IMG/VR virus record: IMGVR_UViG_3300025313_000136 | Span: 1-20,645 of that record | Source: a virus | Direction: 5' to 3' (one strand) | DNA: 20,645 nt | Part shown: positions 16,172 to 20,645 of the stretch, piece by piece | Layout of the letters: every line of letters begins with the position of its first letter | Position numbering within the stretch: the stretch's first letter is position 1 | The notes under the pieces: model-generated | The model's database searches: none | What the model was told of the DNA's origin: nothing | Seen by the model: only the letters and a program-made list of their open reading frames with translations | Translations under genes and position numbers: made by a program

Positions 16172-18388
16172 ATGCCAACAGATCGCTTTGTTATTGCCCC
16201 TCTTGATACTGGTCTTCAGAATGATGTTAAACCATTCTTGATACCAGATGATGCATTTTCTGAACTTAATAATGCATATGTTTTTCGTGGAAGAGTAACA
16301 AAACGATTTGGCTCACGTCTTATGAACATGGCAGTAGATGATGACGTAGCACAGTTGTATTCACGACTAGGTATTGCCATTGGAGTAACTAATGGTGCAG
16401 GAATATTCGGTCCTGTTGTTGTTCCTGGTATAACCTGGAAAATAGGCCAGATGTTCGCTATTGGTGATCAAATTTATACAGTATTTCAACCAAATGGTCC
16501 TATGCTATCTACGGCAGTTGGACCTATTGCGTCATTTGATACCGCTACAGGAATAGTTCAGTTTGCAGGTGCTACGCCCGGCACTATTGTCTATTTCTAC
16601 CCGTCCGAACCCGTTATGGGAATCACTAACTATCAACGAGCGGCAATAAATAATGAAGAAACTATTGCATTTGATACACAATTTTCGTATCACTATGTAG
16701 CTGGTAGATGGGAAAGTCTTGAAGCGCCACCAGTAAAAATATGGACTGGTACAGATTCACAATTCTTCTGGTCAACGAATTTTAGGGGTCTTCAGGCAAG
16801 CGATTATACTTTATTTACAACGAATTTCAATCCACCTGATTTTATGGCTTATTGGACTGGTGGACCTAATTGGACTAATTTTAGACCAGCTTATAATGTG
16901 GCTGGCGATACTGTCGATACTGCTCGGCTTATAATTCCATTCAAGGGTAGATTATTGCTACTTAATACTTTTGAGACCATTACTGCAACTGGGGTTCAAT
17001 CTGCATTCAGTCAACGTTGTCGTTTTTCACAAGTAGGTAGCCCACTTAATGCAGATGCGTTCTTTCAGTTACCTGAGACAGCTGGCAGAGGCGGATATCT
17101 TGATGCATCCACCCGTGAAGCAATCATAAGTTGTAGAATATTAAAAGATCGATTAATAGTATTTTTTGAGCAAAGCACCTGGGAATTAGTCTTTACTAAT
17201 AACCAAGCTAATCCATTCTTGTGGCAAAAGATTAATGCAGAGCTCGGCATTGAATCAACCTTTTCAACTGTATTATTTGATAAAGTTGTTATGGGTGTTG
17301 GTAACGTAGGTATAGTTGCATGTAACGGAGCAAATGTTGATCGCATAGATCAAAAGATACCATATGATGTATTTCAGATACGCAATTCAAATGATGGCAC
17401 AGAGCGGGTACAGGGCATTCGTGATTATTATAACGAGATGGTCTATTGGACATTTCCTATTGAAGATGTTAATGATGTATATCCATCTAAGATATTGGCT
17501 TTTAACTATAAAAATGGATCATGGGCATTCTTTGATGATTCAGTTACCTGTTGGGGATACTATCAAGATCAGATAGATCGCACATGGGGCAACATGAGTA
17601 TAAGATGGCAAGATGCTACTGAGACTTGGGATGGTGCTACATATCAAGCGCAATTCAGAAATATTGTTGCTGGCAACCAACAAGGGTTTGTATTTATAGT
17701 AGATGATAATCTTACTATTAATGCACAGGCTTTACAGATTACTGATATAAACCAAGCTGCTCCAGGTAGCTTCTTCAATGTGGTATTTCATATTGTTGAC
17801 CATAATCTTACAGAAGATGATTTTGTATATATTGATAATATATCAGGCACTAATGACTTCTTACAGTTTAATGGCTTTGTGTGGAAGGTATATCAGCGCA
17901 TAGACTCAAGCACCATTATTATCCAATTGCCCGGTGGTTCCGTCTTAAGTAACTATAATGGTGGTGGCACAATCCGCCAAGTGAGCCGTGTAGATATTCT
18001 TACTAAGATGTATAATTTCTATCCGCAAGCCGCCCGTAATATGCTTATATCTAAGGTTGATTTCAACGTAGATACTACACAAAATGGTGCAGTGACGGTT
18101 GATTATTTTACATCTTCTTCAGTTCAAGGGCTCACTGCTGGTGCTGCTGCAACTGGTGCACTTATAGGTGATGGTACATTGGATATGACGCCTTATGCGT
18201 TGGTTCCACAAGAAGCAACACGAGACTACTTGATTCATCCTGTTTATATTCAGGCTGATGGTGAATGGGTGCAATTGAGAATCTATTATAGTGATGCGCA
18301 GATGTTGGCTAACTTGGTATCTTCTTCTGACTTTGAGCTTAATGCGATGATATTCTATGCAACACAAACATCAAGTAGATTACAATAG
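16172..18388 (+). CDS. Tail stabilisation / hub protein, P22 gp10-like
   Basis: At 738 residues this is the largest protein in the window. The N-terminal segment D-T-G-L-Q-N-D-V-K-P-F-L-I-P-D-D-A-F followed by L-N-N-A-Y-V-F-R-G-R-V-T-K-R-F-G (about residues 12-46) is characteristic of tail stabilisation or hub proteins in short-tailed phages. The middle (about 180-460) is Trp- and Tyr-rich and beta-repeat-like, suggesting a propeller. Around residues 515-590 a beta module with V-D-H-N-L-T-E-D-D-F-V-Y-I-D-N and I-D-S-S-T-I-I-I-Q-L resembles those at 12668 and 14151. The protein likely closes the portal channel and carries fibres. AGGA precedes the ATG, one base after the fibre stop. Confidence 0.75.
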   Translation: MPTDRFVIAPLDTGLQNDVKPFLIPDDAFSELNNAYVFRGRVTKRFGSRLMNMAVDDDVAQLYSRLGIAIGVTNGAGIFGPVVVPGITWKIGQMFAIGDQIYTVFQPNGPMLSTAVGPIASFDTATGIVQFAGATPGTIVYFYPSEPVMGITNYQRAAINNEETIAFDTQFSYHYVAGRWESLEAPPVKIWTGTDSQFFWSTNFRGLQASDYTLFTTNFNPPDFMAYWTGGPNWTNFRPAYNVAGDTVDTARLIIPFKGRLLLLNTFETITATGVQSAFSQRCRFSQVGSPLNADAFFQLPETAGRGGYLDASTREAIISCRILKDRLIVFFEQSTWELVFTNNQANPFLWQKINAELGIESTFSTVLFDKVVMGVGNVGIVACNGANVDRIDQKIPYDVFQIRNSNDGTERVQGIRDYYNEMVYWTFPIEDVNDVYPSKILAFNYKNGSWAFFDDSVTCWGYYQDQIDRTWGNMSIRWQDATETWDGATYQAQFRNIVAGNQQGFVFIVDDNLTINAQALQITDINQAAPGSFFNVVFHIVDHNLTEDDFVYIDNISGTNDFLQFNGFVWKVYQRIDSSTIIIQLPGGSVLSNYNGGGTIRQVSRVDILTKMYNFYPQAARNMLISKVDFNVDTTQNGAVTVDYFTSSSVQGLTAGAAATGALIGDGTLDMTPYALVPQEATRDYLIHPVYIQADGEWVQLRIYYSDAQMLANLVSSSDFELNAMIFYATQTSSRLQ

Positions 18389-18393
18389 TTAGA

Positions 18394-18485
18394 TAATAGA
18401 CAGAGGTCGAATCGAACGACTAGGCAACAGCCTCCGTATGCATAATATACATCCGTCACCATTCACCCCATGGTAGTATCTATTA
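18394..18485 (-). tRNA. Atypical tRNA-like element with long variable arm
   Basis: Read on the minus strand, ends pair over nine bases (TAATAGATA with TGTCTATTA, one G-U). A T arm GTCG-TTCGATT-CGAC, a variable arm AGGC-TGTT-GCCT, a D-arm-like ACCA...TGGT and an anticodon-like hairpin GTAT-ATTATGC-ATAC are all visible. The latter would give anticodon TAT, but a long variable arm does not fit tRNA-Ile. Several unpaired bases separate the arms, and no CCA is encoded. It is either a degenerate tRNA or a tRNA-like RNA. Confidence 0.4.
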
Positions 18486-18490
18486 TAATT

Positions 18491-18568
18491 TGGGGTGATT
18501 GATTGGGTTCGAACCAACGACATCCAGGTTCACAGCCTGGCGCTCTATCCAGCTGAGCTACAATCACC
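18491..18568 (-). tRNA. tRNA-His(GTG)
   Basis: A full cloverleaf is visible on the minus strand: acceptor GTGATTG/CAATCAC, D arm GCTC...GAGC, anticodon stem CCAGG/CCTGG with loop CTGTGAA (anticodon GTG), five-base variable loop, and T arm GTTGG-TTCGAAC-CCAAT. The extra 5' G at position -1 opposite C73, the His identity element, is present. CCA is encoded at 18491-18493, unlike in the neighbours. This is the best-formed tRNA of the cluster. Confidence 0.95.
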
Positions 18569-18589
18569 ATATATTTCAATAATAATCTG

Positions 18590-18654
18590 GGGATAAGTTT
18601 AAGCGATCACGCTAGATGCTTCCATGGGCTATTAACCCTCACACCCCTTATCCC
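18590..18654 (-). ncRNA. 65-nt structured element closed by 8-bp helix
   Basis: GGGATAAG and CTTATCCC form a perfect closing helix. Inside (minus strand) are a hairpin GGG-TTAATAG-CCC with a seven-base loop (18626-18638) and a hairpin AGCG-TGAT-CGCT (18602-18613). The overall plan, closing stem, anticodon-like loop with T at its second place, then a small arm, imitates a tRNA but has no TTCGA-type T loop. Strand is assumed from the neighbours; the closing helix fits either strand. Confidence 0.4.
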
Positions 18655-18668
18655 TCTGCTTTTAATTG

Positions 18669-18734
18669 ATTCGCCTTTAGGTAGATAATTATTTATTCAG
18701 AGTTTTAATCTGTATAAAAATTCTAAAGGCGAAT
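18669..18734 (-). ncRNA. 66-nt element closed by perfect 12-bp helix
   Basis: ATTCGCCTTTAG at 18669-18680 and its exact reverse complement at 18723-18734 enclose 42 AT-rich bases. In the middle lies CAGA/TCTG around a seven-base loop (18698-18712), placed where a tRNA anticodon arm would be. No D or T arm is visible. It fills one tRNA-sized slot in the cluster. It could be an armless tRNA-like RNA, a processing hairpin, or a terminator of unusual form; strand is not decided by the sequence. Confidence 0.4.
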
Positions 18735-18754
18735 TATATTCCAACTTTAATAGG

Positions 18755-18827
18755 TATTCTGGTTGGATTTGAACCAACGTCCAACGACTTAACAGAAGTT
18801 GCTCTAACCGGGCTGAGCTACAGCATA
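18755..18827 (-). tRNA. tRNA, probably Asn(GTT), with irregular anticodon arm
   Basis: Acceptor TATGCTG/CAGAATA (one mismatch), D arm GCTCAGCCCGGTTAGAGC and T arm GTTGG-TTCAAAT-CCAAC are good. The anticodon region contains CTGTTAA, the classic Asn loop, but the flanking bases do not pair properly and the section is one base shorter than usual. Alternative pairing (ACT/AGT) would shift the anticodon. No CCA is encoded. Beyond the acceptor the stem continues with ATAGG/CCTAT. Confidence 0.65.
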
Positions 18828-18846
18828 CCTATATATTTTAAGCGAA

Positions 18847-18935
18847 GTAGAAAGAAGGATTCGAACCTTCGACCAATGATCTCTCATGGTTAGGGTTTTC
18901 AAGGCCCACGCATTCAGCCACTCTGCCATTTCTAC
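18847..18935 (-). tRNA. tRNA-Ser(TGA)
   Basis: Acceptor GTAGAAA/TTTCTAC, D arm GCAGAGTGGCTGAATGC, loop CTTGAAA (anticodon TGA), a long variable arm pairing ACCATGA with TCATTGGT (one bulge), and T arm GAAGG-TTCGAAT-CCTTC give a typical type II tRNA-Ser. The closing pair of the anticodon stem is a C-A mismatch. CCA is not encoded, and the acceptor helix extends outward by GAA/TTC. Confidence 0.9.
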
Positions 18936-18940
18936 TTCTA

Positions 18941-19007
18941 TCTGAATGTAGGAATTGAACCTACTCCCTGGGTATTATCCAGTGCCTGCACCACAGACCA
19001 ATTCAGT
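18941..19007 (-). tRNA. Compact 67-nt tRNA-like gene
   Basis: Minus strand: acceptor ACTGAAT/ATTCAGA (six of seven pairs), D arm GTCT-GTGGTGC-AGGC, anticodon hairpin with CTGG/CCAG around ATAATAC, only two bases of variable loop, and a perfect T arm GTAGG-TTCAATT-CCTAC. It is about six to nine bases shorter than a normal tRNA. Read literally the anticodon is AAT (Ile), which is unusual because bacteria rarely use A at the wobble position. It lies five bases upstream of tRNA-Ser. Confidence 0.5.
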
Positions 19008-19038
19008 GTATATTTCAAATTCAAGCCAGCTCTTCCCT

Positions 19039-19073
19039 GACATGGGTCCGCTATTTCAGGTCCGTGTCTTTTT
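19039..19073 (+). terminator. Rho-independent terminator, + strand
   Basis: GACATGG (19039-19045) pairs with CCGTGTC (19062-19068), one G-U, and is followed by five T. It would end transcripts that run on from the structural genes across the tRNA region. Confidence 0.7.
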
Positions 19074-19086
19074 ATTACAAACTAAA

Positions 19087-19114
19087 GCCTCAGAAGATGA
19101 AGCGCATCTGAGGC
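19087..19114 (-). terminator. Rho-independent terminator, minus strand
   Basis: GCCTCAGA and TCTGAGGC form a perfect 8-bp stem. Read on the minus strand it is followed by TTTAGTTT, so it probably ends the transcript of the fibre-like gene at 19165-19710. The tRNA cluster lies beyond it and must depend on read-through or its own promoter. Confidence 0.7.
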
Positions 19115-19164
19115 CCAACAAAATAAAAGAAGAAAATGAAAGTAAGTAATACTGATATAGTACA

Positions 19165-19710
19165 CTAGCCTTTAAAAAATTCAAGCACAATTAAAACGCG
19201 TGAAAACGCAGTTGCATTCCAATTAGTAGTAATATTAACGTTGACTGCATCTACATATATATCAGCTTGATTACCAGTAGTAACGAAAGTAATAGGGATA
19301 GGAAAGTATATCAAATTAACTGGATCACTTGCTGTCGCATATATCCTGCTAAAAGTAACTTGTGCATCAATATTTGGTATACCGTGTGGTACAGATTTTA
19401 ATCCTGTGTTAGGCAGCGCACCAAAATCTACTACTTTTCGATAGACTCCTCGATATGTTGGTTCTTCTGGTGTAGATGAAGATAATGCTTTATTTGGAAA
19501 GTACACTTGTCCACAATTAAACAGCTCTTCAATATAATAGCCAGCATCTCTAAAATTGACCCCTACAGCAATTTTATTAGTGTGCTGACGCAAACGTACT
19601 AGGAATTCTTTAAACTCATCACCTTTGACATCTAGCGATCGAATCATGTCAACATCATAGACATCAGTTGTCTCAACAAAAGCACTTTGTATGCCACTTT
19701 GGTCTGCCAT
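19165..19710 (-). CDS. Tail-fibre-like virion protein on opposite strand
   Basis: The 181-residue protein has a helical N-terminal half (D-E-F-K-E-F-L-V-R-L-R-Q-H-T-N, about residues 31-45) with N-K-A-L (about 74-77), then Y-R-G-V-Y-R-K-V-V-D-F-G-A-L-P-N-T-G (about 87-104), V-P-H-G-I-P and a beta-rich C-terminus with I-Y-V-D-A-V-N-V-N-I and V-L-I-V-L-E-F. This central pattern recurs in phage tail and fibre-associated proteins. AAGGA is upstream. Inverted orientation, own terminator and a divergent start region mark it as a separately expressed unit, maybe an exchangeable receptor-binding part. Confidence 0.75.
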   Translation of the reverse strand: MADQSGIQSAFVETTDVYDVDMIRSLDVKGDEFKEFLVRLRQHTNKIAVGVNFRDAGYYIEELFNCGQVYFPNKALSSSTPEEPTYRGVYRKVVDFGALPNTGLKSVPHGIPNIDAQVTFSRIYATASDPVNLIYFPIPITFVTTGNQADIYVDAVNVNITTNWNATAFSRVLIVLEFFKG

Positions 19711-19791
19711 TATATTTCCTTCTTTTAAAACTTGTATCGCAGCTTTATGATTATAATATATGTGCGCACAAAATTACGTTAGGAGATAGTT
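19711..19791. promoter_or_regulatory. Divergent intergenic region with TATAAT
   Basis: This 81-base gap separates two genes that start away from each other. It holds TATAAT at 19752-19757 on the + strand, with TTGTAT 14 bases upstream, shorter than ideal. On the minus strand ATTATAAT is also present. TGTGCGCACA at 19761-19770 is a perfect 10-bp palindrome. AGGAG and AAGGA sites serve the + and minus genes. Promoters for both directions are likely here. Confidence 0.5.
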
Positions 19792-20645
19792 ATGGCAGAT
19801 CAAACAAATGATTGGGGACAGCAATTTAGGAGCCCTATTAGTAAAATAGGGGGCATATTTTCAGGGCCAGGTAGGCAATTATACGATATCCCTACCCATG
19901 CTCCTGTTCAAGAATTAGCTAAATATCCTCTTTTTGCAAAAGCACTAGGGAATTTAGTAGGTGGTAGGCAAACTGCACCATTTAATCCGGCTTATGCACG
20001 ACAAAAATTTGAACGTGAAACAGTTCCGTCTATTGCACAAAGATTTGCAGGAACTGGAGACACAGCAGCATCATCTGGATTTATGGGAGAACTTGCTAAG
20101 GCAGGGACTGATCTTGAAGCTCAATTAGAACAAGAGCGTGCCAAATTTGGACAAGAAGAAGAACGATTACGTCAAAGCGAACTTGAAGGGCTTCTTAAAT
20201 TTGGTATGCAGCCAACTTCAGAAAAAATATTGATGCAGAAGCCAGAAGGCGAAGTGCCAATCACGCAAGAAAAAAATCTTGCTGAAAATATTTTTCCTGG
20301 AATAAAAAAAGAGCTGATAAGTACTGCTAATTGGACTGATAAGAAATTGCGCGATAAGATCGAAGAAAAGTATGGGCCAGAAGGTTTATCGAAGTATGAA
20401 TCATTAAAAGAACAATTTGGTATTGGAAAAGAAAAAGGAAAAACAACTACTACAGAAGAAGATATTGCTACTGATGATTGGCTTAAAAGTGCTCAGTCAA
20501 AAGGATATGAAAATCGTGTAAAGGGCGCAAATAAAGAAGTCGAAAAGTTTAAAGACCCTAATGAGCAGCGTGAATTAAGCGAGATTATGGATAGAGCAGG
20601 CGTAAAAAATGCTTCTGAGCTTGCTGCTTTTAGCCCAAAAAATAA
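19792..20645 (+). CDS. Probable virion structural protein, cut by window end
   Basis: The start ATG follows AGGAG at good spacing, and the frame stays open for 284 codons to the window edge. The N-terminus includes L-Y-D-I-P-T-H-A-P and A-K-Y-P-L-F-A-K-A-L; around residues 65-90 there is F-N-P-A-Y-A-R-Q-K-F-E-R-E-T-V-P, then A-Q-R-F-A-G-T-G-D, a pattern I associate with tail or ejection proteins of short-tailed phages. A coiled coil rich in Glu and Gln follows (about 108-145), then a charged hydrophilic region. No membrane segment is visible. An internal virion or ejection role is inferred; the missing C-terminus could change that. Confidence 0.75.
   Translation, partial: MADQTNDWGQQFRSPISKIGGIFSGPGRQLYDIPTHAPVQELAKYPLFAKALGNLVGGRQTAPFNPAYARQKFERETVPSIAQRFAGTGDTAASSGFMGELAKAGTDLEAQLEQERAKFGQEEERLRQSELEGLLKFGMQPTSEKILMQKPEGEVPITQEKNLAENIFPGIKKELISTANWTDKKLRDKIEEKYGPEGLSKYESLKEQFGIGKEKGKTTTTEEDIATDDWLKSAQSKGYENRVKGANKEVEKFKDPNEQRELSEIMDRAGVKNASELAAFSPKN

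What the first reader, a model, noticed from the sequence alone, without database searches (positions are those of the whole stretch)
18394..19007. Seven-slot minus-strand array mixing tRNAs and tRNA-sized non-canonical RNAs
Reading 5' to 3' on the minus strand, the units are: a 67-nt compact tRNA, tRNA-Ser, an Asn-like tRNA, a 66-nt helix-closed element, a 65-nt helix-closed element, tRNA-His and a long-variable-arm tRNA-like. Gaps are 5, 19, 20, 14, 21 and 5 nt, so the two unusual elements occupy regular tRNA slots. This suggests one precursor processed into seven RNAs, some with functions other than normal decoding, for example decoys for anticodon nucleases, or tRNAs eroding after acquisition.
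Basis: partly seen in the sequence, partly recalled or inferred. Interest (0 to 1): 0.75.

Follow-up and report, generated by a model that had tools for sequence, protein, structure and literature searches.

The report
Conserved small RNA among phage tRNAs
A small phage carries a cluster of transfer-RNA genes, several of them damaged, and hidden among them is a short folded RNA of a kind not found in the public RNA library, which a distant relative has kept almost letter for letter; the phage therefore probably uses it, although what it does is unknown.

Summary
The array is real, but it is not seven equivalent units. Three slots are recognised as tRNAs: His, Ser, and an Asn-like tRNA with a broken anticodon arm. 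Slots 1 and 7 look like tRNA relics. Slot 4 is an A+T-rich rod hairpin with no counterpart in the relative. Slot 5 (S5) is the real find.

The closest relative in IMG/VR (L009, 74-88% protein identity) has its own array at the same place, with different tRNAs but with S5. Four-fold degenerate sites between the two phages are only 35% identical, i.e. saturated. In about 40 core nt of S5, including a 19-nt invariant block, the only differences are four that form two compensated A-U to G-C pairs in an 8-bp closing helix. S5's 19-mer is the longest identical non-coding word between the genomes.

S5 is not a tRNA. It matches no Rfam family, and pattern scans of IMG/VR, one 25-mer scan of GTDB genomes and blastn of annotated phages found no further copy. 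The L009 copy is about 53 nt, so "tRNA-sized" is incidental.

Best reading: a conserved three-helix RNA in a tRNA island that turns over and partly decays. Its function is open. Decoy and processing claims were not tested directly.

The parts
18587..18658 (-). S5 (slot 5): conserved three-helix RNA element. P1 18654-18647 with 18597-18590, variable P2 region 18646-18614, P3 18613-18610 with 18605-18602 (loop UGAU), joining UAAA 18601-18598
   Evidence: conserved in L009:1753-1805 with 2 compensated pairs; R1 model 41.9 bits (the model was built partly from this sequence); fold z -2.45; no Rfam family
18597..18615 (-). 19-nt block CTAGCGTGATCGCTTAAAC, identical in the relative
   Evidence: longest identical non-coding word between the two phage sequences; blastn E 1.5e-4
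18491..18567 (-). tRNA-His (GTG), canonical, CCA encoded
   Evidence: ARAGORN, Rfam 66.7 bits
18844..18936 (-). tRNA-Ser (TGA), no encoded CCA, anticodon stem weakened (C.A and T.T mismatches)
   Evidence: Rfam 51.7 bits
18753..18827 (-). Asn-like tRNA with broken anticodon arm, G4.A69 acceptor mismatch and no CCA; probably non-decoding
   Evidence: ARAGORN 'tRNA-???'; Rfam 42.7 bits
18941..19007 (-). slot 1: compact tRNA-like relic (5-nt D loop, perfect T arm, anticodon loop ATAATAC)
   Evidence: fold; only a weak tRNA-Sec match, 17.7 bits
18669..18734 (-). slot 4: A+T-rich rod hairpin closed by 12-nt perfect arms; not found in the relative
   Evidence: inverted repeat, z -6.0; no blastn counterpart in the L009 array
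18396..18483 (-). slot 7: long-variable-arm tRNA-like relic with extra unpaired bases
   Evidence: sequence and fold; no Rfam or ARAGORN match
19087..19103 (-). terminator-like hairpin between the 181-aa gene and the array
   Evidence: consensus match only
19165..19710 (-). 181-aa gene upstream of the array on the same strand (no Pfam or PHROG family), 73-74% identical in L009
19711..19796 (-). conserved upstream region of the 181-aa gene (AT-rich -10-like sequence and ribosome-binding site), possible promoter for that gene and the array
   Evidence: alignment; the promoter role is inferred

Best explanation
The region is a phage tRNA island inserted between two convergent genes (738-aa and 181-aa proteins). 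It is a mixture. One or two tRNAs look fit for decoding (His, perhaps Ser), three genes look like eroding or non-decoding tRNAs (slots 1, 3 and 7), and one RNA, S5, is under purifying selection. Shown: S5 is conserved in sequence and in its closing helix against a saturated neutral background, and sits at the same place on the same strand in the relative. Inferred: S5 is co-transcribed with the tRNAs, cut free when host enzymes trim its tRNA neighbours, and acts as a small structured RNA whose 3' half (hairpin AGCG-UGAU-CGCU plus UAAA, at the junction of P1, P2 and P3) is a binding site for a phage or host protein. The exact partner is unknown.
For: Same-place array in L009 with S5 but different tRNAs. 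Four-fold sites 35% identical over 407 sites, so neutral sequence is randomised. In the first 41 columns of the core alignment there are only 5 differences, four of which make two compensated A-U/G-C pairs; sliding the partners loses the pairing. The 19-mer is the only identical non-coding word of 19 nt or more between the sequences. The rest of the array aligns only at generic tRNA motifs. No tRNA or other above-threshold Rfam match for S5, also none for its strand with permissive filters at E up to 5 that covers it credibly. Aberrant anticodon loops in 3 of 8 tRNAs against 1 of 180 in controls (Fisher p about 2e-4, my arithmetic).
Against: Only two sequences of S5 exist in the collections searched, so two compensations are the whole covariation record; the column-shuffle control cannot be significant with two rows (116 of 500). 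P2 is not conserved in length or sequence. No expression data. Strand and processing are inferred from the neighbouring tRNAs. A DNA-level function (for example a protein-binding or cruciform site) cannot be excluded.
Confidence: 0.6

Rival explanations
1. S5 is a cis-acting element, not a free RNA: a processing, stability or transcription-pausing structure that shields or punctuates the tRNA precursor, acting only in the transcript.
For: It lies between tRNA units on the same strand in both phages, with short linkers to the next tRNA; a hairpin precedes it in both (slot 4 here, TGAGTC-AAATG-GACTCA in L009).
Against: A simple punctuation hairpin does not need a 19-nt invariant sequence including loop and joining bases; neighbouring linkers carry no such element.
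Confidence: 0.17
2. S5 is a DNA-level site (protein-binding, packaging or replication site) whose inverted repeats mimic RNA helices.
For: Single copy per genome; contains the palindrome-like AGCGTGATCGCT with GATC; double-sided changes would also keep a DNA inverted repeat.
Against: Sits inside a tRNA array on the tRNA strand in both phages; the P2 pairing here uses G-U pairs that exist only on the minus strand; an 8-bp repeat with about 50 nt between its arms is an unusual DNA site.
Confidence: 0.13
3. The non-canonical units are decoys for anticodon nucleases, or anticodon-altered tRNAs that resist them.
For: Phage tRNAs with anticodon-loop mutations predicted to evade such nucleases are described (PMC10264068); aberrant anticodon loops are enriched in these two arrays.
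Against: S5, the only strongly conserved unit, has no conserved anticodon arm and is 53 nt in L009; the altered loops are broken in length and stem, which would hinder decoding as well as cleavage; that paper concerns loop mutations in usable tRNAs, and a text search of it found no mention of decoys. No such nuclease was sought or found.
Confidence: 0.06
4. Chance: S5 is a leftover of shared ancestry or a recent exchange, without function.
For: Only two copies known.
Against: Neutral sites are saturated (35%); flanking array sequence shows no recent exchange; differences fall exactly into compensated pairs.
Confidence: 0.04

Closest known systems
Phage tRNA islands with anticodon-loop-altered tRNAs (van den Berg et al. 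2023, PMC10264068)
   Same: Phage-borne tRNA cluster, with tRNAs whose anticodon loops depart from the canonical form.
   Different: There, substitutions in usable tRNAs; here, loop-length and stem defects that probably stop decoding, and a non-tRNA RNA in the array.
GOLLD and ROOL RNAs (PMC12286853)
   Same: Non-tRNA structured RNAs of unknown cellular function found near tRNA islands of phages and prophages.
   Different: Those are far larger (GOLLD members often exceed 800 nt) and have Rfam models; S5 is 53-72 nt and matches neither.
Stable RNAs C and D of the phage T4 tRNA cluster (from memory, not tested)
   Same: Stable non-tRNA products encoded within a phage tRNA cluster.
   Different: No sequence comparison was made; S5 is, as far as I recall, shorter.
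tRNA (RF00005)
   Same: Neighbouring units are true tRNAs; S5 is closed by an 8-bp helix and is of similar length in the window.
   Different: No T arm, no anticodon arm in the relative, no match to the tRNA model.

Membership tests
tRNA (for S5) | cloverleaf with T arm and TTC loop, match to RF00005 | tested here: not met
   no tRNA match at E up to 5 in either phage; fold is a P1/P2/P3 junction
tRNA (for slots 2, 3 and 6) | match to RF00005 over the gathering score | tested here: met
   51.7, 42.7 and 66.7 bits against 29
decoding tRNA (for slot 3) | 7-nt anticodon loop on a paired 5-bp stem | tested here: not met
   ARAGORN assigns no amino acid; stem mismatches
tRNA (for slots 1, 4 and 7) | match to RF00005 over the gathering score | tested here: not met
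   no RF00005 match at E up to 5
GOLLD / ROOL | match to the Rfam model | tested here: not met
   no match in the window at gathering score or in 18300-19200 at E up to 5
known self-cleaving ribozymes and riboswitches in Rfam | match to the Rfam model | tested here: not met
   no match at E up to 5 with permissive filters
anticodon-nuclease decoy | RNA bound or cut by a host anticodon nuclease | not testable with these tools
   needs biochemistry
T4 stable RNAs C/D | sequence or structural homology | not tested
   no model or sequence of them was compared

The most novel reading that the evidence does not exclude
S5 is the first example of a new class of compact, trans-acting phage RNA with an invariant hairpin-and-junction core, carried and processed as a cassette within tRNA islands, and the neighbouring anticodon-broken tRNAs are kept for a shared non-decoding role (for example against a host defence that acts on tRNA).
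Probability: 0.15. Interest if true: 0.75.

Novelty: new variant of a known kind. Interest (0 to 1): 0.5.

Why it matters
Why phages carry tRNA clusters is still debated, and annotation stops at the tRNAs that programs recognise. Here the one unit that stays constant while the tRNAs turn over is not a tRNA and is invisible to annotation. If it is a functional RNA, other phage tRNA islands may hide similar passengers, and the whole array may be kept for reasons other than decoding. The claim is testable with a short deletion and small-RNA sequencing once a host is known.

Tried and rejected
Other copies of S5: exact and partly degenerate patterns in IMG/VR, a 25-mer in GTDB genomes, blastn in annotated phages, covariance model over held loci and 49 relative records. 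Nothing beyond L009. The Helicobacter and Staphylococcus phage hits (22-26 nt, E 2-7) lack the flanking helix and are chance. Loose pattern hits lack a P1 of 7-8 bp.

Array in other relatives: about 95 loci around the 738-aa/181-aa junction have no such array; a few have one ordinary tRNA, and one relative has four ordinary tRNAs elsewhere.

Orthology of degenerate units (Asn-like with L009 'tc'; slot 1 with the L009 unit at 1589-1668; His with L009 'ga'): suggestive features (shared G4.A69 mismatch, similar D arm), but global alignment scores lie within the range given by unrelated phage tRNAs, so not claimed.

Antisense targets of S5 within the two phages: mostly G-rich pairings with many G-U pairs, none evidently shared.

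Host: no relative of the 738-aa protein in GTDB genomes, so the host is unknown.

A first MAFFT alignment of S5 misplaced the 5' strand of P1; core-only sequences, with the variable P2 removed by hand, were used instead. The alignment therefore rests on my choice of core, although both flanks match without gaps.

Full report
What was checked. The window is a 20,645-base virus record with terminase, portal and major head genes; it is probably a fragment, as its relatives run to about 35 kb, and the host is unknown. Programs recognise three of them as tRNA: His, Ser and an Asn-like gene with a broken anticodon arm. Slots 1 and 7 have tRNA-like parts (T arm, variable arm, anticodon-like hairpin) but fail the tRNA model. 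Slot 4 is a long rod hairpin (12-nt perfect arms, z -6.0). Slot 5, called S5 here, folds into a closing helix with two inner hairpins.

The comparison that decides. Among the relatives found with the 738-aa and 181-aa proteins, only one contig, IMGVR_UViG_3300044980_000225 (L009 and others), is close, and only it has an array at the same place. Its array holds Glu, Asp and Gly tRNAs, two tRNAs with aberrant anticodon loops, one further tRNA-like unit with an enlarged anticodon loop, and a copy of S5. The two genomes are far apart at neutral sites: 35% identity at 407 four-fold degenerate sites, so unconstrained sequence is randomised. Against this background the S5 core alignment shows, in its first 41 columns, five differences, of which four form two pairs that change together from A-U to G-C in the 8-bp closing helix P1; the fifth opens its outermost pair. 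The 3' half, CTAGCGTGATCGCTTAAAC, is identical over 19 nt and is the only identical non-coding word of 19 nt or more between the two sequences. The rest of the two arrays aligns only at motifs common to all tRNAs. With two sequences the shuffle control has no power (116 of 500), so the argument rests on saturation plus exact compensation, not on a covariation statistic.

What S5 is not. It is not a tRNA, and no Rfam family reaches its cut-off; with permissive filters up to E 5 nothing credible covers it. Its length is 72 nt here and 53 nt in the relative, the difference lying in the P2 region, so filling a tRNA-sized slot is incidental. Pattern, model and similarity scans found no third copy. 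The scans of IMG/VR used exact or lightly degenerate strings, so diverged homologues could be missed.

The tRNA-like units. In ten control phage loci 1 of 180 ARAGORN tRNAs has an aberrant anticodon loop; in the two arrays it is 3 of 8. The controls were chosen as similarity hits, not at random. The simplest reading is turnover: tRNAs are gained, lose decoding ability and fade, while acceptor and T arms persist longer. Selection for non-decoding tRNAs is not excluded. Apparent orthology between individual degenerate units of the two phages was tested and is not secure.

How it may work. Strand, spacing and neighbours suggest one minus-strand transcript, possibly from the conserved region upstream of the 181-aa gene, although a terminator-like hairpin lies between that gene and the array. 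Host tRNA-processing enzymes would then release the pieces (established for tRNA clusters in general; inferred here). The invariant hairpin loop and joining bases suggest a binding site for a protein. None of these steps was shown.

Place among known things. GOLLD and ROOL are precedents for non-tRNA structured RNAs near phage tRNA islands (PMC12286853), and anticodon-loop changes in phage tRNAs are described (PMC10264068). S5 sits in a similar setting but belongs to neither. The find is a small, probably new RNA motif known from two phages.

Noticed in passing
window 19711-19796; L009:2735-2835: The region upstream of the 181-aa gene is strongly conserved between the two phages (TGCGCAC, a TATA-rich stretch, CTGCGATACAAGTTTT and the ribosome-binding site), although neutral sites are saturated; it may hold promoters for both divergent genes.
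   Followed up: partly
window 19165-19710 and relatives: The 181-aa gene is inverted relative to the 738-aa gene in some relatives and direct in others, with gaps from about 10 to 1200 bases, so this junction has been rearranged repeatedly.
   Followed up: partly
L009:1589-1668 minus: A tRNA-like unit whose anticodon loop is enlarged to about 15 nt and contains a small hairpin; part of it matches an arm of a hairpin at L009:1226-1239.
   Followed up: no
L009:1671-1744 and 1939-2012 minus: Two tRNAs with 6-nt anticodon loops and a mismatch at the second pair of the anticodon stem; otherwise good tRNA scores (56.6 and 47.7 bits).
   Followed up: partly
L038, L240, L241 (relatives): Several relatives carry a single intact tRNA-Glu (TTC), in L038 at the same junction as the array.
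   Followed up: partly
L239:1000-3527 minus: A relative (contig of L041) has four ordinary tRNAs (Glu, Thr, Cys, Asp) spread among small genes elsewhere in its genome.
   Followed up: partly
window 16172-18388 and 19165-19710: The 738-aa and 181-aa proteins match no Pfam or PHROG family, and the 738-aa protein has no tblastn match in annotated phages, yet relatives are found on hundreds of IMG/VR contigs.
   Followed up: no
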